64,000 nucleotides of DNA, from the NCBI RefSeq assembly GCF_017313085.1, contig NZ_JAFLNF010000003.1, positions 310,001 through 374,000 of the forward strand. Direction: 5' to 3'. Below, piece by piece: positions 34,506 to 44,209 of this stretch. A program made the position numbers and the translations under genes. Positions within the stretch are counted from its first letter, which is position 1, and every line of letters begins with the position of its first letter. This stretch comes from Roseibium limicola. Lineage in GTDB: Bacteria; Pseudomonadota; Alphaproteobacteria; Rhizobiales; Stappiaceae. Below the pieces are notes generated by a model. It was not told the DNA's origin and made no database searches. It saw nothing but the letters and a program-made list of their open reading frames with translations.

Positions 34506-34832
34506 TCAGCGCAGGCCGAGAAGAACCGTGTCACCCTCCAGTTTCACCGGGAATTGTCTCACTCTGCCCTCATCTGCTCCCTGCGCCTCGCCTGTTTCCA
34601 GGCTGATGACCCAATTGTGGAGCGGACAGGTGACGCAGCCGTCGTGCACGATGCCCTGGCTGAGCGGCCCGCTGCGGTGAGGGCACTTGTCCTCCAGCGC
34701 ATGGACGTGATCATCAGCAGTGCGGAAGATCGCGACGGTCATCTCCCCCATTTTCACGCAGCGTGCTCCCTGACGAGGAATGTCGGTGATGGAGCCAACA
34801 GCGGCCCAGTCCTGCATGGCAATAACGTTCAT
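34506..34832 (-). CDS. nirD: Nitrite reductase small (Rieske) subunit
   Basis: A 108-aa Rieske-type protein. The [2Fe-2S] ligands are present in CPHRSGPLSQG (residues about 42-52) and CPLHNWVISL (about 62-71), so unlike the E. coli NirD it appears able to bind a cluster. It pairs with NirB in NADH-dependent nitrite reduction to ammonium and may also deliver electrons to NasA. Its start overlaps the nirB stop by 4 bases. Confidence 0.93.
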   Translation of the reverse strand: MNVIAMQDWAAVGSITDIPRQGARCVKMGEMTVAIFRTADDHVHALEDKCPHRSGPLSQGIVHDGCVTCPLHNWVISLETGEAQGADEGRVRQFPVKLEGDTVLLGLR

Positions 34833-37282
34833 TCCGCAGCCTCCTGAGGTAGGGTCGCCAGGGGGTTGAACTCGTGCTTGTCCTTACCGGAGACGCGCTC
34901 CGACCACGGATCCACCTGGGCGAATTTCTGAGAGAAAACAAATCGGTCGAAATAGGCGTTGCGCTTTTCCGCGTCATCCATGATCTGACGGCGGATTTCA
35001 TCGAGACCAATGCGCTTCGCCCATTTGTAAATCCGCTCCAGGTAATAGCCCTGTTCGCGGTACATCTGAGACAGAGCCACCACGTAAACGAGAGCATCTT
35101 CCTCTGTACGGACAGTGCCCAGCACTTCGGTGCCCTTGATGTCCAGGCCAGCAGCTCCGGCAAAATGGATCTCGTAGCCACTGTCAACGCAGATGATGCC
35201 AATGTCCTTGCAGGTCGCTTCTGCGCAATTGCGGGGACAACCCGAGACGGCCAGCTTGAGCTTCGCAGGGGTCCAGGACCCCCACATGAATTTCTCAAGC
35301 TTGATGCCCAGACCGGTGGAATCCTGCGTGCCGAAGCGGCACCAATCGGTGCCGACACAGGTTTTCACTGTGCGCAGGCCCTTGGCATAGGCTTGTCCGG
35401 AGACGAACCCGGCCTTGCCGAGATCAGCCCAAACGGCAGGCAAGTCTTCCTTCTTGATGCCGAGCATGTCGATGCGCTGACCACCGGTGCATTTCACTGC
35501 CGGAATGTCGAACTTGTCGACCACATCGGCGATCGCCCGAAGCTCTTTCGACGAGGTCATGCCACCCCACATCCGCGGGACAACCGAGTAGGTGCCGTCC
35601 TTCTGAATGTTGGCGTGAACACGCTCGTTGATGAAGCGTGACTGGTAGTCATCGGCATATTCATCCGGCCAATCAGAGACCAGATAATAGTTCAGGGCCG
35701 GACGGCACTTGGCACAGCCCTGGGATGTGGTCCATTCCAGCTGCTGCATCACTTCCGGAATGGTCTTGAGTTCCTTGGCCTTGATCAAGCGCCGGACGTC
35801 GCCGTGACCCAGTTCCGTGCAGCCACACATCGGCTGGACTGCGGCAGGGTTGTAGGCATCCCCGAGAGTTGAGGCGAGCAGCTGCTCGACCAGACCTGTA
35901 CAGGTTCCGCAGGACGCGGAAGCCTTTGTATGCGCACGAACTCCATCCAAGCCTGTCAGTCCCTTGGACGTGATGGCGTTGACAATGGTGCCCTTGCAAA
36001 TGCCGTTGCAGCCGCAGATTTCTGCATCATCCGGCAAGGCTGCAACGGCCGCCGTAGGGTCCAGGGGGGCGCCCCCCTGATATGCCTGGCCAAAAATAAG
36101 GGTCTCACGCATCTCCGCGATGTCGGTCCCCTTCTTGAGCATATCGAAGAACCACGGACCATCGGATGTCTCGCCGTAGAGAACCGCGCCGATGATCTTG
36201 TTGTCCTTCAGGACCAGCCGCTTGTAGACGCCCGAAGATGCGTCACGCAGAACGATCTCTTCGCGGTCATCAGCCTCGGCGAAGTCGCCGGCGGAGTAGA
36301 GGTCGACGCCCGTCACCTTCAGTTTGGTGGCCGTGACTGATCCCTTGTATTCGGCCGTGCCCTCAAGAAGGTTATCGGCGATGACCTTGGCCATCTCGTA
36401 AAGCGGTGCGACGAGGCCGTAGCACATGCCGCCATGCTCAACGCACTCACCCAGCGCAAAGACGTCCGGGTCTGACGTGCGCATGTCGTCGCCAACCAGA
36501 ATGCCCCGGTTGACGTCCAGGCCGGCGATCTTGGCAAGATCCCCGGAAGGTCGGATGCCGACCGCCATGACGATGATCGAGGCATCGATAACTGATCCGT
36601 CGTCGAGTTTGATGCCGGCGACCTTGCCGGTACCATCATCCAGGATCTCGTGGCTGTTGGCCTTGGTGCGGACATCAATTCCACGCCGCTTGAACTCTGC
36701 CTCAAGCAGATACCCCGCTGCGGGATCAAGCTGACGCTCCATCAGGGTCGGCATAAGGTGAAGGACGGTGACGTCCATGCCCTGCATCTTGAGGCCGGCT
36801 GCAGCTTCAAGACCGAGCAGGCCGCCACCGATCACCACAGCCCGGCCCCCGTTTTCGGCAGCGACGAGCATCTTGTCCACGTCATCCAGATCGCGGTAGG
36901 TCAGAACACCATCGAGATCCTTGCCCGGAAGCGGAATAATGAAAGGATTGGAACCGGTCGCAATGACCAGTTTGTCATAGGCGGCAGTGATCCCGCTTTC
37001 CGACGTGACAGTCTTCGCTGTTCGATCGATCTCGCTGATGCGGGCCGACTTGTGCAGTGTCACCCGATTGGTCGCGTACCAATCTTCGTCATGGGTGATG
37101 ATGTCCTCATAGGTCTTCTCGCCAGAGAGAACCGGCGACAACATGAGGCGGTTGTAGTTCACCCTCGGTTCGGCGTTGAAAATCGTAACGTCATAGGCGT
37201 CTGGATTGGACTCGAACAGATGCTCCAGCATCCGTCCCGGCGCCATGCCGTTGCCCACCACAACCAATCTTTGCTTGGTCAT
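34829..37282 (-). CDS. nirB: NAD(P)H nitrite reductase large subunit
   Basis: An 817-aa cytoplasmic enzyme reducing nitrite to ammonium with six electrons. Residues 1-310 are the FAD/NAD module (VVVGNGMAPGRMLEHL; AVVIGGGLLGLEAAAGLKMQ). BFD-like [2Fe-2S] segments follow (CGCNGICKGTIVNAI and CGTCTGLVEQLL near residues 417-460; a second set CGCTELGHGD and CAKCRPALNY). The carboxyl half is the sulfite/nitrite reductase fold with siroheme-[4Fe-4S] ligands CVGTDWC (near residue 640) and CPRNCAEATC (near residue 680). Siroheme would come from CysG at the end of the cluster. Confidence 0.97.
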   Translation of the reverse strand: MTKQRLVVVGNGMAPGRMLEHLFESNPDAYDVTIFNAEPRVNYNRLMLSPVLSGEKTYEDIITHDEDWYATNRVTLHKSARISEIDRTAKTVTSESGITAAYDKLVIATGSNPFIIPLPGKDLDGVLTYRDLDDVDKMLVAAENGGRAVVIGGGLLGLEAAAGLKMQGMDVTVLHLMPTLMERQLDPAAGYLLEAEFKRRGIDVRTKANSHEILDDGTGKVAGIKLDDGSVIDASIIVMAVGIRPSGDLAKIAGLDVNRGILVGDDMRTSDPDVFALGECVEHGGMCYGLVAPLYEMAKVIADNLLEGTAEYKGSVTATKLKVTGVDLYSAGDFAEADDREEIVLRDASSGVYKRLVLKDNKIIGAVLYGETSDGPWFFDMLKKGTDIAEMRETLIFGQAYQGGAPLDPTAAVAALPDDAEICGCNGICKGTIVNAITSKGLTGLDGVRAHTKASASCGTCTGLVEQLLASTLGDAYNPAAVQPMCGCTELGHGDVRRLIKAKELKTIPEVMQQLEWTTSQGCAKCRPALNYYLVSDWPDEYADDYQSRFINERVHANIQKDGTYSVVPRMWGGMTSSKELRAIADVVDKFDIPAVKCTGGQRIDMLGIKKEDLPAVWADLGKAGFVSGQAYAKGLRTVKTCVGTDWCRFGTQDSTGLGIKLEKFMWGSWTPAKLKLAVSGCPRNCAEATCKDIGIICVDSGYEIHFAGAAGLDIKGTEVLGTVRTEEDALVYVVALSQMYREQGYYLERIYKWAKRIGLDEIRRQIMDDAEKRNAYFDRFVFSQKFAQVDPWSERVSGKDKHEFNPLATLPQEAAE

Positions 37283-37305
37283 ATTGATCCTCTCCCTCTT
37301 GAGGA

Positions 37306-39066
37306 CTATTCCGCGGCCTGCATGGCGGCTTTCTGCCGGGCCATGCGGGTTGCGCGTTTTTCCTGAATGGATTTCAACTGTTCTTCGCTCGGATCCGCGC
37401 CGCCTTCGTAGGCTTCCAGGAAGTCCAGAAGCTCTTCGCGGTAGGCGTAGTAATCCGGGTGAGCGAGAAGCTCCTTGCGGGAGCGTGGACGCGGCAGGTC
37501 CACTTCCATGATGTTGCCGATGCGTGCATTCGGCCCGTTCGACATCATCACAACACGGTCAGCCAGCAGGATGGCTTCATCCACATCGTGCGTGACGCAG
37601 ACTGCCGTCACCTGGGTGCGTTTCCACACCTCCATCAGCACGTCCTGCAACTCCCAGCGCGTCAAGCTGTCAAGCATGCCAAACGGCTCATCAAGCAACA
37701 GAAGCTTCGGTGACAAGGCAAAGGCCCTGGCGATCCCGACCCGCTGCTTCATGCCATTGGAGAGATCCAGGGCCGGCTTGTTCATCGCATCGCTGAGACC
37801 GACCTTGGACAGGTAATATTCAATAACGTCGCGTTTCTCGGTTTTGGAGGCGTCTGGATAGACCTTGTCGACACCAAGTGCGACGTTTTCATAAGCCGTC
37901 AGCCAGGGCATAAGACTGGGAGCCTGAAACACAACGGCTCGGTCCGGGCCGGCCTTGGTCACATGGGTGCCGTCCAGAATGACCGAACCTTCGGTGATCC
38001 CATTAAGGCCTGCGACCATCGACAGCACCGTCGACTTGCCGCAACCTGAATGACCGATCAGCGTGACGAACTCGCCCTTCTTCATTTTCAGATCGAAGCC
38101 GTCGACAACGGTCAGCGGTCCCTTTGGCGTCGGATAGACCTTCTTCACCTGGCTGAATTCCAGGTAACGGTCTTCCGTGATCGTTTCGGCTGCCCGCTCG
38201 TAGGCCGCCGGCAGCCTGTCTGCTTTTGACAGTCTCTGAGTGATTGGCACCAGAGTCGGCAACACAATCTCGCGCTCTACCTCAGCCTCGACCTCCGCGC
38301 CCACCGTCATCAGGTAGTCAGTGATTTCGGCGCGAAGACTGATGAAGTCATCATTGTGGTTCAACTCTCCCCGGTCGCGGGGACGCGCGAAATCAACCTT
38401 GAACTCCGGCCCCAGCGTGGCCGGTGAACCGGGCTTCAACGGCACGATTCGATCCGCCAGGAGAATGGCCTCATCCACATCGTTGGTGATAAGAAGGATG
38501 GTCTTCTTCTCTTGCTCGCAGATTGCCGCAAACTCGTCCTGCAACTTGGCCCGTGTCAGCGCATCCAGAGCCGATAGGGGCTCATCCAGCAGCAGAAACT
38601 CCGGGCGCATGGCAAGCGCGCGTGCCACAGCCACGCGCTGACGCATACCACCGGAGAGTTCCGAAGGCTTACGATCACGGGCGTGACCCAGACCGACCAT
38701 GTCGATGTATTTGTCTGCAATCGCCTTGCGCTCCGAAGAGGGCTTCTTCTTGAAGACCGAGTCGACAGCAAGCGACACATTCCCGAACACCGTCAGCCAC
38801 GGCATCAGGGAATAGGACTGGAACACCACGCCCCGCTCCGGGCTCGGCCCGGAGATTTCCTTGTTCTTGAAGATGATGCCGCCCGTGTCAGGCTCGATCA
38901 AACCAGCCAGCAGGGAGATCAGAGTGGTCTTGCCGGAGCCGGAGAAACCGACAATGGCAATGAATTCGCCTTCGCCGATCTTAAGGTTGATGTCACCCAG
39001 GACCTTTGTCCGGGAGGCACCCTCACCATAGCTTTTCGACAGATTGGAGATCTCAACAAAACTCAT
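37306..39066 (-). CDS. nrtCD: Nitrate ABC transporter ATPase, two ATPase domains fused
   Basis: A 586-aa protein with two complete ABC domains in one chain. Domain 1: Walker [10 protein letters not shown] (near residue 37), signature [15 protein letters not shown], Walker [11 protein letters not shown]. Domain 2: Walker [10 protein letters not shown] (near residue 341), signature [15 protein letters not shown], Walker [11 protein letters not shown]. It energises the NrtB permease. In cyanobacteria NrtD is a single ATPase and NrtC is an ATPase fused to a binding-protein-like domain; here the second half is another ATPase, with no binding-protein-like domain. Second signature has SNGMK instead of SGGMR. 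The start at 39066 follows AAGGAGCATCCG; 10 bases separate it from nrtB. Confidence 0.92.
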
Positions 39067-39076
39067 CGGATGCTCC

Positions 39077-40159
39077 TTATCGATTGGCAGAGAAGGTGAA
39101 GGCGCGCTGCAAGGCAAACATCAGGCGATCAAGAGCAAAGCCGATGATGCCGATGGTGACGACAGCGACCATGATCTTGGCCAGGGACTGGGAAGAGCCG
39201 TTCTGGAATTCATCCCAGACGAATTTTCCGAGCCCCGGGTTTTGCGCCAGCATTTCCGCGGCGATCAGCACCATCCAGCCCACGCCCAGCGACAACCGAA
39301 GACCGGTGAAGATCAGCGGCAAGGACGACGGCAGAACCAGCTTGGTGATGGTCTTCCAGGTCGGCAGTTGGAGGACACGACCGACGTTCATCAGGTCCTT
39401 GTCGACAGAGGCAACACCCAGTGCGGTGTTGATCAGCGTCGGCCACATTGAGCAGAGCGTCACAGTCACGGCGGAGATCAGCAGAGACTTGGACAGCCAG
39501 TCATAGGCATCGGCGTAGGTGGCGGAGACGATCATCGTGACGATTGGCAGCCAGGCTAGTGGCGAGACCGGCTTGAAGATCTGGATCAACGGATTGATGG
39601 CACCATTGAATGTTCGTGACAGACCGGAGGCGATGCCAAGCGGCACTGCAATCAGTGTGGCAATCAGGAACCCCAGGCCGACAGTCTTCAAGGATGTGCC
39701 GATCTGGTCGATATAGGTCGGCGCGCCGGTGAACGTACGCCATTTGATCCGGTCGGTTTTACCGGCAGCTTCCAGCTTGGCGTTACGCTCGTCCTGGCGG
39801 TCGTAGAAGGCGTCGGCCTTTTCGCGTTGTCGAACGTGGTCGCCCCACAGGTTGACCGCCTGATCCCAGACCTGAACCGGACCTGGGACGGCACCGAGGG
39901 ATGTCTGGACCTGCGGTGCCAGGACGCCCCAGAGGGAAACAAATGCAACGATGCCAAGGAGTGGGATCAGAAGCACCCGCTTCAATTCACCCACCTGTTC
40001 TTTGACGTCGTCACCAGCAGCAATTTTCAGAAGTGGAACAGTCCAGGACAGGCCGAGCGCATCAAGCCAGCTTGATGCCTTGTTAATCCTGGTGAAGAGA
40101 CGTTCCTTACGGGCCTGACGCGCTATATCCGCGCCTGCAGCAGTCTCGGCATTGGCCAT
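39077..40159 (-). CDS. nrtB: Nitrate ABC transporter permease
   Basis: A 360-aa inner-membrane protein. After a polar lead and one helix ([19 protein letters not shown]), a roughly 80-residue soluble insert is followed by the BPD_transp_1 domain, with the EAA-like segment near [20 protein letters not shown] and the end [21 protein letters not shown]. Typical of NrtB/SsuC/TauC-family permeases; the insert between helix 1 and the core matches alphaproteobacterial NrtB. AAGGATC precedes the ATG. It lies 100 bases after nrtA, behind a strong hairpin. Confidence 0.93.
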
Positions 40160-40259: not shown

Positions 40260-41684
40260 TCAGCCTCCGACCACTTCAGATCCTTCGACGGTTTGCTTGC
40301 CCTTCAAGCCGATGGGCAGGCTGTCGATGTAGGCGTTGGGCTGTTTGCCGTCGTAGGCAATGCCATCGATGATGTCTTCAGTTGGAGTTGGGTCGCGATA
40401 ACCATCTGTTTCCCAAGGAAAATCACCATCCTCAACATAGCCTTCCTCGACCAGCATCTTCGCGGCCTTGAGATAGATTTCCGGCTTGTAGACGGACTTT
40501 GCGACCTCGTCGTACCAGCTGTCAGGCTTGTAATCGGAAATCTGGCCCCATCGGCGCATCTGGGTCAGATACCAGACGGCATCGGAGTAATAGGGATAGG
40601 TCGCGAAGTAGCGGTAGAAGACGTTGAAGTCCGGCACTTCACGCTTGTCGCCCTTCTCGTACTCGAAGGTTCCGGTCATCGAGTTGGCAATGACTTCCTG
40701 ATCAGCACCGACATATTCCGGACGGGACAGGATCTCGACGGCTTCCATGCGGTTGGCGTTGTCGTTCTCATCCAGCCACTTGGCAGCACGGATCAGCGCC
40801 TTGGTGATCGCCAGTGTCGTGTTCGGATATTCTTCCGTGAACTCCTGGGTCAGGCCGAAGACCTTTTCCGGATTGTTCTTCCAGATCTCGTAGTCGGTGA
40901 TGACCGGTACGCCGATACCCTTGAACACAGCTTGCTGGTTCCACGGTTCTCCGACGCAATAGCCGTAAATGGTGCCTGCCTCGAGAGTGGACGGCATCTG
41001 CGGCGGCGGCGTTACCGAAAGAAGTGCATCGCCTTTGATCTGCCCGGAAATGTCGGTCTTGGAATAGAAACCTGGATGAATGTCGCCGGACGCGAGCCAG
41101 TAGCGCAGCTCATAATTATGGGTCGAGACCGGGAAGACCATGCCCATGTTGAAGGGCTTGCCTTCAGACTTGAACTGGTCGACGACCGGCTTCAAAGCAG
41201 ACGCCTTGATCGGGTGTACCGGCTTGCCATCGGCCTGCATCTCAAGATGCGGCTTCATCAACTCGAAGATCTCGTTGGAAACGGTGATGCCGTTGCCGTT
41301 CAAATCCATCGAAAATGGCGTTACGATATGTGCCTTTGTGCCGAAGCCAATGGTTGCAGCAAGTGGCTGACCGGCCAGCATGTGGGCTCCATCCAATTCA
41401 CCGGTAATTACCCGGTCGAGGAGCACCTTCCAGTTGGCCTGCGGTTCGATGGTGACGAAAAGACCTTCATCCTCGAAGTAGCCCTTCTCATAGGCAATGG
41501 CGAGCGGCGCCATATCGGTCAGTTTGATGAAGCCAAACTTCAATTCGTCCTTTTCCACGTCCAGCATGTCTGCATTCGCAGTCGTGGACATGAAACTCGC
41601 GCCTGCGGACACCCCAGCCGCCAACACTACGGCGGCCCAGGTGGTGTTGCATTTGATCGTCGTGGTCACTTGCAGATCCCTCAT
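40260..41684 (-). CDS. nrtA: Nitrate-binding protein of ABC transporter
   Basis: A 474-aa exported protein of the NrtA/CmpA family. The first 39 residues contain a signal-like hydrophobic stretch ([20 protein letters not shown]) ending ANAD. Mature features are [20 protein letters not shown] near residue 47, [20 protein letters not shown], and [20 protein letters not shown], regions that form the nitrate pocket in NrtA. It captures periplasmic nitrate for NrtB-NrtCD. It is the first gene after the regulated leader, so the whole cluster depends on read-through there. Confidence 0.94.
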
Positions 41685-41791: not shown

Positions 41792-41852
41792 AAAACAAAA
41801 AAGCCGCCGATGGACCGACACACGGGAGGTGTGTTTCAGTCTCATCGGCGGC
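41792..41852 (-). terminator. Intrinsic terminator in nrtA leader (NasT-controlled candidate)
   Basis: A 10-bp stem GCCGCCGATG (41843-41852)/CATCGGCGGC (41803-41812) is followed on the minus strand by TTTTTTGTTTT. An inner hairpin ACACAC-CTCCC-GTGTGT sits in its loop. It lies about 108 bases before the nrtA start, so it must be bypassed for the cluster to be transcribed. Its 5' arm overlaps the antiterminator hairpin at 41846-41859. Confidence 0.85.
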
Positions 41853-41859
41853 TTTGCCG
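41846..41859 (-). promoter_or_regulatory. ANTAR-type hexaloop hairpin P2
   Basis: RNA CGGC-AAAGCC-GCCG: a 4-bp GC stem closed by a six-base loop with A at position 1 and G at position 4, the consensus of ANTAR-protein targets. It shares bases with the 5' arm of the terminator, so P2 and terminator exclude each other. NasT, encoded just upstream, is the expected ligand. Confidence 0.7.
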
Positions 41860-41862
41860 TGT

Positions 41863-41878
41863 CGCCCCGCTTCGGGCG
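41863..41878 (-). promoter_or_regulatory. GC-rich hexaloop hairpin next to P2
   Basis: RNA CGCCC-GAAGCG-GGGCG: 5-bp stem, six-base loop with G at position 4 but G rather than A at position 1. Three bases from P2. It could be an off-consensus P1 or a spacer hairpin. Confidence 0.45.
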
Positions 41879-41890
41879 CTTATTCCTCTG

Positions 41891-41910
41891 GAAGGCCTTC
41901 TTTGGCTCTC
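41891..41910 (-). promoter_or_regulatory. ANTAR-type hexaloop hairpin P1 candidate
   Basis: RNA GAGAGCC-AAAGAA-GGCCTTC: seven-pair stem with one A-C mismatch and one G-U pair, loop AAAGAA with A1 and G4 as in P2. It starts within a base or two of the predicted sigma-54 start site (about 41911). With P2 it would give the dual-hairpin ANTAR target, separated by 31 bases. Confidence 0.55.
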
Positions 41911-41921
41911 ACCCCTAACCT

Positions 41922-41937
41922 TGCAGGAAGTGTGCCA
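41922..41937 (-). promoter_or_regulatory. Sigma-54 (-24/-12) promoter of the nitrate operon
   Basis: Minus-strand TGGCACACTTCCTGCA: GG and GC elements are exactly 12 bases apart, matching TGGCAC-N5-TTGCA with one mismatch. Predicted start near 41911. Points to nitrogen-limitation control through RpoN and an NtrC-type activator. Confidence 0.8.
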
Positions 41938-42082
41938 ATTGGATTACTTCCCTATACTATTAATGAATTCAATACCTTAATGAAAATTAACAGAATTACC
42001 CAATGCGTGCGCCGCACAAAAACTCGGCCCGTTTATTTCGCAGATGAACAATATTTACGCATAGCGTCCGGAGATTTAGCAG

Positions 42083-43258
42083 TCAGGAACGGATCTTGAA
42101 CCCGTCGATGTAACCTTTGACGTTCTCTGGATTGAACTCCAGTCCATCAAAAAAATGGAAACCGAGATCAGCACGCCCGGCGGTAAGGGGGGCCAGCCCC
42201 ATTGCCGATGAGTAAATGTCCGGCGCAAAGGTGTGTTGAACCACCTTCAGGTCTTCGTCGGAGTAGATCGCCTGACCCCAGCGCACCATCTGGGAATAGA
42301 ACCACAGACCATGATGAGGATTGGGCAATTGGGCGCCGTACCCGGAAACCTTGAAGATTTCCGCCTCCACTTCAGGCCCGGTCTTGCCCAACTGCAAGCG
42401 TCCTGTCAGAGCAGGAAGACAGGCCTCAGCCGGGCAATCAAGAAACTCCTGACGTGCCAGAACCTGCGCCAGCTCAGTGGCATTCTCCTTGAGCGCGCAC
42501 CAGTCGGAGGCATTCTTCAACGCCTGGATAAGGCGATGCAAAACATCCGGATTGCGTGCCGCCCAGCTTTCCGTGACACCAAGCACCTTTTCCGGGCTCG
42601 ACGGCCAGATCGCCTCCTTGAAGGTCACGATACGTCCGCGACCACTTAGAACAGACACCGTGTTCCAAGGTTCGCCCACGCAATAGCCATCAATCTGATG
42701 CATCGTCAGTGCATCGGGCATCAATGGCGGTGGCAACACCGAAATCTCGACATCCCGGTCGGGATGAATCCCCACGCCTGCAAGCCAGTAGCGCAGTTCA
42801 TAGGCGTGACCGGAGAAAGGATGCACGACGCCGAAGCGCAAAGGATGCCGTCCGGCATCCGCGCGTTTTCTGACCAGAGATGCCAGCGCTTCCCCCGTCG
42901 CCCTGGGTTCGCCGTCCTCGGCTGCCCCCTCGCCCTGCAAATCAGCCCAGAGTGCGTTGGAGACCGTGATGGCATTGCCACCAAGCCCCAGGAACATCGC
43001 AGCCCGCATTGGCACGGCAAGGGTCGTGATTTTCAGTGAGGCGGCAATCGGCATCGGCCCCAACATATGGGCGACGTCGAAATGACCGACGGCAATACGG
43101 TCGCGAATATTGGCCCAGGAAGTCTCGCGGATCAGCTTCAGATCAATGCCCTGTTCCTCGGCAAATCCATAGGTCGATGCAATTACCAGCAGTGCACTGT
43201 CAAGCAGCGGTATATATCCGGCAACAACGCTATCCAAAGTCCCAGCGCTCATACTCAT
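42083..43258 (-). CDS. nasS: NasS, cytosolic nitrate/nitrite sensor
   Basis: A 391-aa protein homologous to NrtA but without any signal peptide (starts MSMSAGTLDSVVAGYIPLLD), so it stays in the cytoplasm. Shared pocket features: FDVAHMLGPMPIAASLKITT near residue 59 and [17 protein letters not shown] near residue 195. In Paracoccus and Azotobacter, NasS binds and silences NasT without nitrate and releases it when nitrate or nitrite is bound. Translationally coupled to nasT by a 4-base overlap. Same strand as, and directly upstream of, the regulated nrtA leader. Confidence 0.9.
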   Translation of the reverse strand: MSMSAGTLDSVVAGYIPLLDSALLVIASTYGFAEEQGIDLKLIRETSWANIRDRIAVGHFDVAHMLGPMPIAASLKITTLAVPMRAAMFLGLGGNAITVSNALWADLQGEGAAEDGEPRATGEALASLVRKRADAGRHPLRFGVVHPFSGHAYELRYWLAGVGIHPDRDVEISVLPPPLMPDALTMHQIDGYCVGEPWNTVSVLSGRGRIVTFKEAIWPSSPEKVLGVTESWAARNPDVLHRLIQALKNASDWCALKENATELAQVLARQEFLDCPAEACLPALTGRLQLGKTGPEVEAEIFKVSGYGAQLPNPHHGLWFYSQMVRWGQAIYSDEDLKVVQHTFAPDIYSSAMGLAPLTAGRADLGFHFFDGLEFNPENVKGYIDGFKIRS

Positions 43259-43842
43259 TCCTCCAAGAGACCACTGGCAATCACGAGGCTCTGGGCTACC
43301 TCGATTATCTTGCGGCTCTGGTTCATCGCGGTCTTTCGCAGGAGCCGATAGGCCTCATCCTCCGAAATCCCGCGCGTTTTCATCAAGATCCCCTTCGCCC
43401 GCTCAACCGTCTTGCGCTCAGCCAGTTCACTGCGCGCCTCTGCCAGCTCGTTTGTCAGTCGGGAAAATGCGCGGAAGCGGCTGATCGCCATATCGAGGAT
43501 GGGCTTCACCCGTTCCTTTTTCAGCCCGTCCACCACATAGGCAGAGACGCCTGCTTCGACGGCCGCCTCAATAGAGCCCGCGTCGGACTGGTCAACAAAC
43601 ATGGCAATGGGTCTTTGGACTGCACGCGTCACCTGAAACATGTGTTCCAGCTTGTCACGGTTGGGATTTTCCAGATCGATGACGATCACATCAGGATCGA
43701 TCTCTGCGATGCGCCGAACCAGCCCATCCATTTCATGCACCAGGATAACCCGAAAATGACCAGCATCGTGCAGGCCCTGCTCGATTATGGAAGCACGGAT
43801 GTGATTGTCATCAATGACGAGAATGGAAAGCGCGGGCGACAT
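43255..43842 (-). CDS. nasT: NasT, ANTAR-domain RNA-binding antiterminator
   Basis: A 195-aa two-domain regulator. Residues 1-125 are a receiver-like domain (LSILVIDDNHIRASII; DVIVIDLENPNRD). Residues about 130-190 are the ANTAR RNA-binding domain: ERKTVERAKGILMKTRGISE, then DEAYRLLRKTAMNQSRKIIE with the conserved alanine and arginine positions. It should bind hexaloop hairpins in the nrtA leader and prevent termination. The start at 43842 (MSPALSILVIDDNH) is preferred because the receiver domain begins there; the frame remains open upstream to 44010 without homology. Its ribosome-binding site is weak (GGGGGC). Confidence 0.9.
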   Translation of the reverse strand: MSPALSILVIDDNHIRASIIEQGLHDAGHFRVILVHEMDGLVRRIAEIDPDVIVIDLENPNRDKLEHMFQVTRAVQRPIAMFVDQSDAGSIEAAVEAGVSAYVVDGLKKERVKPILDMAISRFRAFSRLTNELAEARSELAERKTVERAKGILMKTRGISEDEAYRLLRKTAMNQSRKIIEVAQSLVIASGLLEE

Positions 43843-44209
43843 GCCCCCATTATGCGCAGGCCTGATAATTGTGCAATGCACCAAAAGCACTGGACCACTG
43901 AAATTCACGTCTTGCTTAAGCTGCCGCCCACCAAGATCGGTTATCAGCCAAAAAGATCCTGATATTTTCAGATATAGACGCCAGCCAACAGCAGACGAAG
44001 ATGATCTCATAAGCTGGGATTACCAGAGTGCCGCACCACGAACGTCACTCTCAGCGCAACCCAAAATGCCGGCTCCCAGTCGCCTGGCAAGACAGTTCAT
44101 GCCCTGCACTGCCTTTTCTTTTACCTGATAATTTGCTTCCATCGCATCTCATCCGAAGCACGGCAGGAGGTGCTGCGTTTCGGTTCATGTCTTTGGGAGG
44201 AAACGCCAA
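43843..44209. other. Divergent promoter region nasT / dehydrogenase
   Basis: 367 bases without a gene. On the minus strand, about 35-48 bases before nasT (43877-43890), the sequence GTGCTTTTGGTGCA contains the right half (TTGGTGCA) of the enteric NtrC consensus with a poor left half. Suggestive only. The plus-strand gene at 44210 has a GGGAGGAAACG ribosome-binding site. Confidence 0.35.

What the first reader, a model, noticed from the sequence alone, without database searches (positions are those of the whole stretch)
41792..41937. Complete nitrogen/nitrate AND-gate: sigma-54 promoter, hexaloop hairpins and terminator before nrtA
Directly seen: a TGGCACACTTCCTGCA promoter with exact -24/-12 spacing; 11 bases later an AAAGAA hexaloop hairpin at the predicted RNA 5' end; a second AAAGCC hexaloop hairpin whose bases are shared with the 5' arm of a 10-bp terminator followed by T6. 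nasT (ANTAR) and nasS lie directly upstream on the same strand. Known: NasT/NasR-type ANTAR proteins bind paired hexaloops with A1 and G4 and prevent termination. Inference: nitrogen limitation starts transcription and nitrate lets it continue. Unusual: a third GC-rich hexaloop hairpin (GAAGCG, off consensus) sits between the two good ones, so P1 identity and linker length are unclear.
Basis: partly seen in the sequence, partly recalled or inferred. Interest (0 to 1): 0.75.

Follow-up and report, generated by a model that had tools for sequence, protein, structure and literature searches.

The report
Nitrate-gated leader RNA before nrtA
This is a genuine RNA on/off switch that probably lets a marine bacterium make its nitrate-uptake genes only when it is short of nitrogen and nitrate is present; the switch type is known, but here it has an extra binding hairpin, and its stop signal carries a ribosome-site-blocking sequence that suggests the aborted RNA may do a second job.

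Summary
Single motifs are near chance, but a hexaloop pair overlapping a terminator occurs once here and in 0 of 50 shuffles, and the architecture is conserved.

It is a NasT (ANTAR) attenuator behind a sigma-54 promoter, a known kind. A conserved NtrC-like site lies about 125 bases upstream. One correction: the "off-consensus" middle hairpin is the canonical P1, with loop G4 in 75 of 75 leaders and A1 in 69. The AAAGAA hairpin is an extra 5'-end hexaloop (P0), purine-1/G4 in 28 of 28 Stappiaceae/Cohaesibacter leaders.

It recurs in NasT leaders of four other families, though most families lack it. Mesorhizobium leaders carry another known sRNA loop, GGAUGUA. I infer, untested, that the terminated leader may also act as a small RNA.

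The parts
43255..43842 (-). nasT: REC + ANTAR antiterminator; likely start at the conserved ATG 43842 (the longer ORF opens at 44010)
   Evidence: Pfam ANTAR 4.1e-21 and Response_reg 1.2e-8; start chosen from relatives
42083..43258 (-). nasS: NrtA-like nitrate sensor without an obvious signal peptide (inspection only)
   Evidence: Pfam NMT1_2 3.8e-69; overlaps the end of nasT; used to fetch 80 relatives
42045..42061 (-). NtrC-like upstream element TGCGTAAATATTGTTCA, a diverged copy of TGCAC-N7-GTGC/TTCA
   Evidence: at -124 from the sigma-54 site, 12 of 17 matches to the L010 copy; the same place in 24 of 28 group A and 40 of 52 group B leaders at 11 or more of 17
41922..41937 (-). sigma-54 (-24/-12) promoter; predicted +1 near 41911
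   Evidence: TGGCACACTTCCTGCA; a TGGCA-type site in 79 of 80 related loci; rpoN in own genome
41891..41910 (-). P0: extra 5'-end hexaloop hairpin, loop AAAGAA 41903-41898
   Evidence: 28 of 28 group A leaders have a C-G-closed hexaloop here with purine 1 and G4; 9 of 9 further same-genus leaders too
41863..41878 (-). P1: canonical first hexaloop by position, loop GAAGCG 41873-41868 (G1 instead of A1)
   Evidence: G4 75 of 75, A1 69 of 75; 4 of 6 stem pairs with compensatory change
41846..41859 (-). P2: second hexaloop, loop AAAGCC 41855-41850; its 3' side is also the terminator 5' arm
   Evidence: AAAGCC or AAAGCT in 28 of 28 group A leaders
41797..41855 (-). intrinsic terminator, T6 at 41802-41797; mutually exclusive with P2
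   Evidence: 94.6% of cells paired over 13 pairs, 27 distinct sequences; RNAfold
41824..41829 (-). CCUCCC, anti-Shine-Dalgarno-like apical loop of the terminator
   Evidence: CTCCC in apical part of 24 of 28 leaders, shuffle mean 4.7, maximum 11; CTCCTCCC in 14 of 25 leader terminators of L003-L029 against 0 of 132 other terminators
40260..41669 (-). nrtA, target gene; conserved GTG start at 41669 (ATG at 41684 opens the longer ORF)
   Evidence: Pfam NMT1_2 2.2e-92; conserved GAGGG...GTG
34829..40159 (-). nrtB, nrtC, nirB: rest of the controlled operon as far as checked
   Evidence: NirB TIGR02374 896 bits

Best explanation
A nitrate-gated transcription attenuator. Inferred: under nitrogen limitation, sigma-54 RNA polymerase with NtrC starts an RNA near 41911 that begins with hexaloop P0. 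Without nitrate, NasS holds NasT; P0 and P1 fold, but P2 is absorbed by the terminator and an RNA of about 115 nt is released before nrtA. With nitrate or nitrite, NasS lets NasT go, NasT binds the hexaloops, P2 is held, the terminator cannot form, and nrtABC-nirB is transcribed. P1 is the middle hairpin and pairs functionally with P2; P0 is an additional NasT-type hexaloop at the 5' end, probably an early loading site. Shown here: the sequence elements, their conservation, and the mutually exclusive P2 and terminator pairings. Inferred from NasR, EutV and NasT work: binding and signal response.
For: Gene order nasT-nasS-leader-nrtABC-nirB; nasTS upstream of a similar leader in relatives. Sigma-54 site in 79 of 80 loci and a conserved NtrC-like element upstream. 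P1 G4 75 of 75 and A1 69 of 75 although P1 was chosen by stem alone. Compensatory changes in P1 and in the terminator. P0 purine-1/G4 in 28 of 28. One model match per genome in 40 of 45 same-genus genomes, own included, and one convincing copy in the own genome. rpoN and ntrC present. Published background: ANTAR hexaloops with A1 and G4 (PMC3369931, PMC8934654, passages); NasS-NasT in Paracoccus and Bradyrhizobium (PMC5424462, PMC6759348, passages).
Against: P1 here has G1 where published work needs A1. The window's NtrC-like element is diverged, and stricter consensus scans missed it. The sigma-54 motif alone is at chance frequency in the window, and 9 of 31 order- and class-level leaders showed no such site by my pattern. 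The conserved P2 stem is only 3 bp. The P1-P2 linker is about 3-4 nt by inspection, below the 5-12 nt range reported for eut leaders (PMC3369931 passage). No expression data.
Confidence: 0.87

Rival explanations
1. One reading: the 5' AAAGAA hairpin is the true P1 and pairs functionally with P2, and the middle hairpin is a spacer.
For: In the window and L003-L005 the middle loop has lost A1 while the 5' loop keeps A1/G4. This could be a real hand-over within that small clade.
Against: The middle hairpin keeps its stem with compensatory change even there (L005: CGTCC/GGACG) and G4 in 75 of 75. The AAAGAA-type hexaloop is missing from most group B leaders (6 of 52 have the purine-1/G4 signature). 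The distance from P0 to P2 is far above the tolerated linker unless P1 folds between them. Compensation is not general: in group A, P0 has A1 in 4 of 5 leaders with P1 G1 and in 12 of 23 leaders with P1 A1.
Confidence: 0.12
2. The terminated leader doubles as a trans-acting small RNA: its CCUCCC/CCUCCUCCC terminator loop pairs with Shine-Dalgarno sites of other mRNAs, as alpha-r14 (NfeR1) sRNAs do. Nitrogen-starved cells without nitrate would then make a riboregulator in place of the transporter mRNA.
For: CTCCC in apical part of 24 of 28 leaders against shuffle mean 4.7, maximum 11 of 500 shuffles. CTCCTCCC in 14 of 25 leader terminators and 0 of 132 other terminators from the same loci. alpha-r14 matches at E up to 0.001 in 13 of 13 same-genus genomes; the own genome has three tandem copies with nine perfect CCTCCTCCC loops, scoring just below the family's curated cut-off. 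The same kind of loop in NasT leaders of four further families. Group B leaders mostly carry GGAUG(U/G)A (33 of 47 terminators); GGAUGUA is another conserved sRNA loop of Rhizobiales (PMC3927594 section 2.5, first part). Attenuator-derived sRNAs exist in Sinorhizobium (rnTrpL, from a cited title; RZ, whose role in trans is untested; PMC9373788 passages).
Against: Patchy: 3 of the 16 families with nas-linked leaders in the order sample have it in the genomes examined, and L117, from another genus of the window's own family, lacks it. Of 30 same-genus loci, 8 lack CTCCC and 5 lack both CTCCC and CTCCTCC. In L146, the carrier from another order, I found no sigma-54 site. The window's own copy is the shorter CCUCCC and matches only 4 bases of the ntrB and nrtA ribosome sites (by inspection), so no target is identified.
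Confidence: 0.35
3. Decoy model: in the terminated RNA the free P0-P1 pair soaks up NasT, a feedback like that of EutX/Rli55 on EutV (recalled; only a search listing was seen).
For: P0 and P1 both carry purine-1/G4 loops in group A, and the P0-P1 linker is about 11 nt in L010 (by inspection), within the range reported for eut leaders (PMC3369931).
Against: No direct evidence. In most group B leaders the 5' hairpin is not such a hexaloop, so the role would be clade-specific.
Confidence: 0.2
4. Only a terminator for nasTS plus a chance sigma-54-like site; the hairpins are incidental.
For: Each motif alone is near chance in the window.
Against: Fixed arrangement across 28 plus 47 leaders with compensatory changes and invariant loop positions; a hexaloop pair overlapping a terminator in 0 of 50 shuffles.
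Confidence: 0.03

Closest known systems
Klebsiella oxytoca nasF leader (Ntr control plus NasR antitermination)
   Same: Nitrogen-limitation control by the Ntr system followed by nitrate-controlled antitermination through an ANTAR protein (from passages of PMC5424462).
   Different: Sensor and RNA-binder are two proteins here (NasS, NasT) instead of NasR; a third hexaloop at the 5' end; anti-Shine-Dalgarno-like terminator loop.
NasS-NasT leaders of Alphaproteobacteria (Paracoccus nasA, Bradyrhizobium nosR and nirA)
   Same: nasTS with hairpins and a terminator in the target's leader (PMC5424462, PMC6759348 passages).
   Different: The passages seen describe two hairpins (HI, HII) or a NasT-interaction hairpin; they mention no third hexaloop and no sRNA-type loop. 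Full texts were not read.
EutV dual-hexaloop leaders (Enterococcus eut)
   Same: Hexaloops with a conserved G4, P2 overlapping the terminator (PMC8934654, PMC3369931 passages).
   Different: Three hexaloops; purine rather than strict A at loop position 1; shorter P1-P2 linker.
alpha-r14 / NfeR1 / 'cuckoo' sRNAs (RF02344)
   Same: CCUCCUCCC loop held by stems of changing sequence (PMC3927594 section 2.7; PMC10746234 passages).
   Different: One such hairpin, serving as the terminator of a sigma-54/NasT attenuator, instead of three or four in a free-standing sRNA.

Membership tests
ANTAR (NasT/EutV-type) antitermination leader | ANTAR-domain protein encoded with the target | tested here: met
   nasT, Pfam ANTAR 4.1e-21
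ANTAR (NasT/EutV-type) antitermination leader | two neighbouring hexaloop hairpins with A1 and G4 | tested here: inconclusive
   P2 meets both; P1 in the window meets G4 but has G1. A1 in 69 of 75 leaders. P0 meets both but is not in the canonical place.
ANTAR (NasT/EutV-type) antitermination leader | P2 overlaps the 5' arm of an intrinsic terminator | tested here: met
ANTAR (NasT/EutV-type) antitermination leader | NasT binds the RNA and prevents termination when nitrate is present | not testable with these tools
   needs gel shift and read-through assay
sigma-54 / NtrC promoter | GG-N10-GC -24/-12 element | tested here: met
   15 of 16 consensus positions; a TGGCA-type site in 79 of 80 loci
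sigma-54 / NtrC promoter | rpoN and ntrC present in the genome | tested here: met
   rpoN 427 bits, ntrC 711 bits, both over the cut-off; a histidine-kinase ORF beside ntrC by inspection
sigma-54 / NtrC promoter | upstream NtrC enhancer site | tested here: inconclusive
   TGCACAAAATTTGTGC-type element at -122 to -128 in 24 of 28 group A and 40 of 52 group B leaders at 11 or more of 17 matches; the window's copy is diverged (12 of 17), strict consensus scans of 30 leaders did not find it in the window, and that NtrC is its binder rests on recalled consensus
alpha-r14 (RF02344) sRNA | match to the family covariance model | tested here: not met
   the leader is not among the five own-genome RF02344 matches nor in the cmscan at E up to 5; only the loop motif is shared
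alpha-r14 (RF02344) sRNA | accumulates as a stable small RNA and silences mRNAs by its loop | not testable with these tools
   needs Northern blot and reporter assay

The most novel reading that the evidence does not exclude
The failed transcript is itself a regulator. Nitrogen-starved cells without nitrate would release a leader of about 115 nt whose terminator loop (CCUCC(UCC)C in Stappiaceae and some members of four other families, GGAUGUA in Mesorhizobium) is the active loop of known Rhizobiales sRNAs. A single sigma-54/NasT switch would then choose between making the nitrate-uptake mRNA and making an sRNA that lowers translation of other genes. Different lineages would have fitted different sRNA loops into the same attenuator.
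Probability: 0.35. Interest if true: 0.75.

Novelty: new variant of a known kind. Interest (0 to 1): 0.5.

Why it matters
The switch logic is known, but I found no description of two conserved additions in the papers I could search (open-licence library only, mostly listings and passages): a third NasT-type hexaloop at the RNA 5' end, and an sRNA-type loop inside the terminator. The first offers a natural test of how many hexaloops an ANTAR protein uses and whether loop position 1 must be A. The second predicts a small RNA made only when nitrogen is short and nitrate absent, in culturable Roseibium strains, which one Northern blot can confirm or dismiss.

Tried and rejected
Rfam at gathering threshold found only two tRNAs in the window. 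The leader region at E up to 5 gave two weak hits, RF00489 and RF00625, far below their gathering scores.

Other NasT targets in the own genome: the model's second hit, C16:124125-124207 at E 0.004, looks like an ordinary terminator behind a coding region and was rejected; the third is the reverse strand of the leader. The second ANTAR protein lies beside amide/ABC-transporter-type genes and looks like AmiR (by inspection); not followed.

Model hits L120 and L137 had no nas gene nearby and were not counted; L120 carries TCTCCTCCC all the same. L116 was dropped from the loop count because its CTCCC lies in a predicted stem. L127 and L140 are read as one leader seen at two contig ends, since their shared letters agree.

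In-cis roles of the CUCCC loop: pairing within the leader is not conserved, since GAGG or GGAG occurs in the first 60 nt of 6 of 28 leaders. The nrtA site GAGGGA offers only about 4 contiguous pairs. nasT appears leaderless in relatives, so its ribosome site is no evident target. ntrB as target is weak in the window.

NtrC site: strict consensus scans of the first 30 leaders did not pick out a site in the window, and I first took that as absence. On checking, they had repeatedly hit one place near -125 in relatives; one search showed a conserved element there. This raised my confidence in the main explanation from 0.85 to 0.87.

The whole-genome pattern CTCCTCCC-N6-28-TTTTT gave 4 rows, 3 distinct places, against 5 for the reversed control pattern, so it shows that such terminators are few, not that they are enriched. 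RF02343 was tried in error for alpha-r14; it is ar9. A literature search with ANTAR as a word beginning returned Antarctic papers and was useless.

Rows dropped: L055 (no sigma-54 leader), L065, L071, L074 (no terminator T-run found in the span examined), and L031, L032 (no P2 by my pattern) are outside the 75-leader count, which includes the window. P2 was picked with G4 required, so its G4 count is biased; P1 was picked by stem only, within 13-30 nt before P2. Of the 30 same-genus loci, 21 have a leader identical to one in group A and only 9 are new; three of the 30 are duplicates of each other. The loop-against-flank identity (97% against 41% and 29%) is anchored on the motif and covers 26 of 28 leaders; the shuffle control is the fair test.

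Full report
WHAT IS THERE. All features lie on the minus strand. nasT (ANTAR) and nasS are followed by a leader of about 400 bases and then nrtA, nrtB, nrtC and nirB. The leader holds a sigma-54 element at 41937-41922. About 12 bases after its GC comes the predicted start, followed by three hairpins with six-base loops: P0 AAAGAA, P1 GAAGCG and P2 AAAGCC. P2 overlaps an intrinsic terminator that ends with T6 at 41797. Fold energy is 5.9 standard deviations below shuffles.

CHANCE. Alone, the sigma-54 pattern (2 in the window, 1.78 expected) and neighbouring hexaloops (7 against a shuffle mean of 4.7) are not remarkable. A hexaloop pair overlapping a terminator is: once in the window, at this place, and never in 50 shuffles.

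RELATIVES. A scan with NasS gave 80 named loci, mostly Roseibium/Labrenzia/Stappia and Mesorhizobium (the best 80 of 112 were kept). In 79 of 80 a TGGCA-type sigma-54 site follows nasS. I call the window plus L003-L029 group A (28 leaders, Stappiaceae by name and one Cohaesibacter) and the rest group B. Choosing P1 by stem alone within 13-30 nt before P2, loop position 4 is G in 75 of 75 and position 1 is A in 69 of 75; the six exceptions, window included, have G; the loop-to-loop distance is 18-19 in 63 of 75. In group A, P1 stem pairs change together in 4 of 6 pairs and 97.5% of cells pair; the terminator arms pair in 94.6% of cells.

THE PROMOTER. rpoN and ntrC are present in the genome. 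Strict NtrC consensus scans did not pick out a site in the window. Comparison did: an element of the type TGCACAAAATTTGTGC (the GCAC-N7-GTGC form I recall for NtrC) or TGCACAAAAAAAGTTCA lies 122-128 bases before the sigma-54 site, with 11 or more of 17 matches to the L010 copy, in 24 of 28 group A and 40 of 52 group B leaders. The window's copy, TGCGTAAATATTGTTCA at 42061-42045, is diverged. At the level of the order and class, 9 of 31 leaders had no sigma-54 site by my pattern.

THE EXTRA HEXALOOP. In group A every leader (28 of 28) has a C-G-closed hexaloop within the first bases of the RNA, with a purine at 1 and G at 4; 9 of 9 further same-genus leaders agree. Loop position 2 is A in 28 of 28 and position 1 is A16/G12. 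In group B only 6 of 52 leaders have this signature there, and 11 of 22 order- and class-level leaders with a sigma-54 site do, some of which may be a P1 in a leader without P0. P0 is thus a third hexaloop, constant in this lineage and patchy elsewhere. Both P0 and P1 show G at position 1 in some species, so NasT of this lineage probably tolerates G1 (inference).

GENOME-WIDE. A covariance model of the leader finds one convincing copy in the own genome, one match each in 40 of 45 same-genus genomes, and matches in 26 of 121 genomes of the order and 8 of 289 of the class; each count includes the own genome, and the larger searches used stricter filters.

THE TERMINATOR LOOP. In group A the apical stem of the terminator varies, but its loop region keeps CUCCC, often CCUCCUCCC: CTCCC in 24 of 28 against a mean of 4.7 and maximum of 11 in 500 shuffles. 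In the loci L003-L029, CTCCTCCC occurs in 14 of 25 leader terminators and 0 of 132 other terminators; the looser CCTCC or CTCCC in 23 of 25 and 9 of 132. Of 30 same-genus loci, 22 have CTCCC and 20 CTCCTCC; counting only the 9 leaders not already in group A, 6 and 4. Some have degraded versions such as CCUUCC. In the order sample, 25 of 27 non-own loci have nas genes nearby; loops of this kind occur in 5 of them, from 4 genomes of 3 families (L121, L122, L127 with L140, L138). One of 7 non-own class loci has it too (L146, from another order), though I found no sigma-54 site there. L117, from another genus of the window's own family, lacks it. CCUCCUCCC is the loop of alpha-r14 sRNAs (PMC3927594 section 2.7); NfeR1 of that family silences ntrBC in Sinorhizobium (PMC10746234 passages). 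RF02344 matches at E up to 0.001 occur in 13 of 13 same-genus genomes searched; the own genome has three tandem copies, just below the curated cut-off, with nine perfect loops. Group B leaders carry GGAUG(U/G)A in 33 of 47 leader terminators against 7 of 100 others; of those 7, two look like second NasT leaders and four lie at the end of nasS. GGAUGUA is the conserved loop of another Rhizobiales sRNA family and of cold-shock 3' ends (PMC3927594 section 2.5, first part of two).

READING. The core is a known kind: promoter control by nitrogen and antitermination by nitrate, as described for Klebsiella and for NasS-NasT in Paracoccus and Bradyrhizobium (passages). The variant features are P0 and the sRNA-type terminator loop. 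That the released leader acts in trans is inference. Attenuator-derived sRNAs are reported in Sinorhizobium: rnTrpL, by the title of a cited paper, and RZ, whose role in trans was left open (PMC9373788 passages). Against it stand the patchy distribution, the shortened loop in the window (CCUCCC), and the absence of any convincing target.

LIMITS. No expression or binding data were available. Papers were seen as passages or named sections, not whole. The statement that I found no description of these features rests on searches in an open-licence library.

Noticed in passing
window 41669 and 41684 (-): nrtA probably starts at the conserved GTG (GAGGG, 8 nt, GTG) and not at the upstream ATG, which reads CAG in L005.
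   Followed up: partly
window 43843-43890 (-) and loci of group A upstream of nasT: A conserved stretch like TTGCAnAAAAA...TGCGCATAAT ends just before the nasT ATG, with no evident ribosome site: nasT may be leaderless, with an NtrC-like site overlapping its promoter.
   Followed up: no
group B leaders (Mesorhizobium and relatives, among L030-L082): Terminator loop CCGGAUGUACGG, the GGAUGUA loop of SmelB053-type sRNAs and cold-shock 3' ends; GGATG[TG]A in 33 of 47 leader terminators.
   Followed up: partly
L065, L071, L074 (Zavarzinia): Longer leaders with several A1/G4 hexaloops (four in L074), possibly two NasT elements in tandem.
   Followed up: no
L045 near 9095, L079 near 8992, L139 1501-1609: What look like second NasT-type leaders further down the nitrate operon; L139 lies between nrtC and nirB.
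   Followed up: no
L110 (G000:C12:215586-215700) and L109 (G000:C13:367810-367910): Two further terminator hairpins with CTCCTCCC loops in the own genome, possibly alpha-r14-like sRNAs.
   Followed up: no
L120 (another family of the order): Sigma-54-like site, hairpins and terminator with TCTCCTCCC loop between an antiporter-like ORF and a LacI-type regulator ORF, no nas gene: perhaps a nitrogen-controlled anti-Shine-Dalgarno sRNA.
   Followed up: no
L002 (G000:C1:408739-408900): Second ANTAR protein of the genome, AmiR-like by inspection, beside an AmiC-like and a transporter ORF.
   Followed up: no
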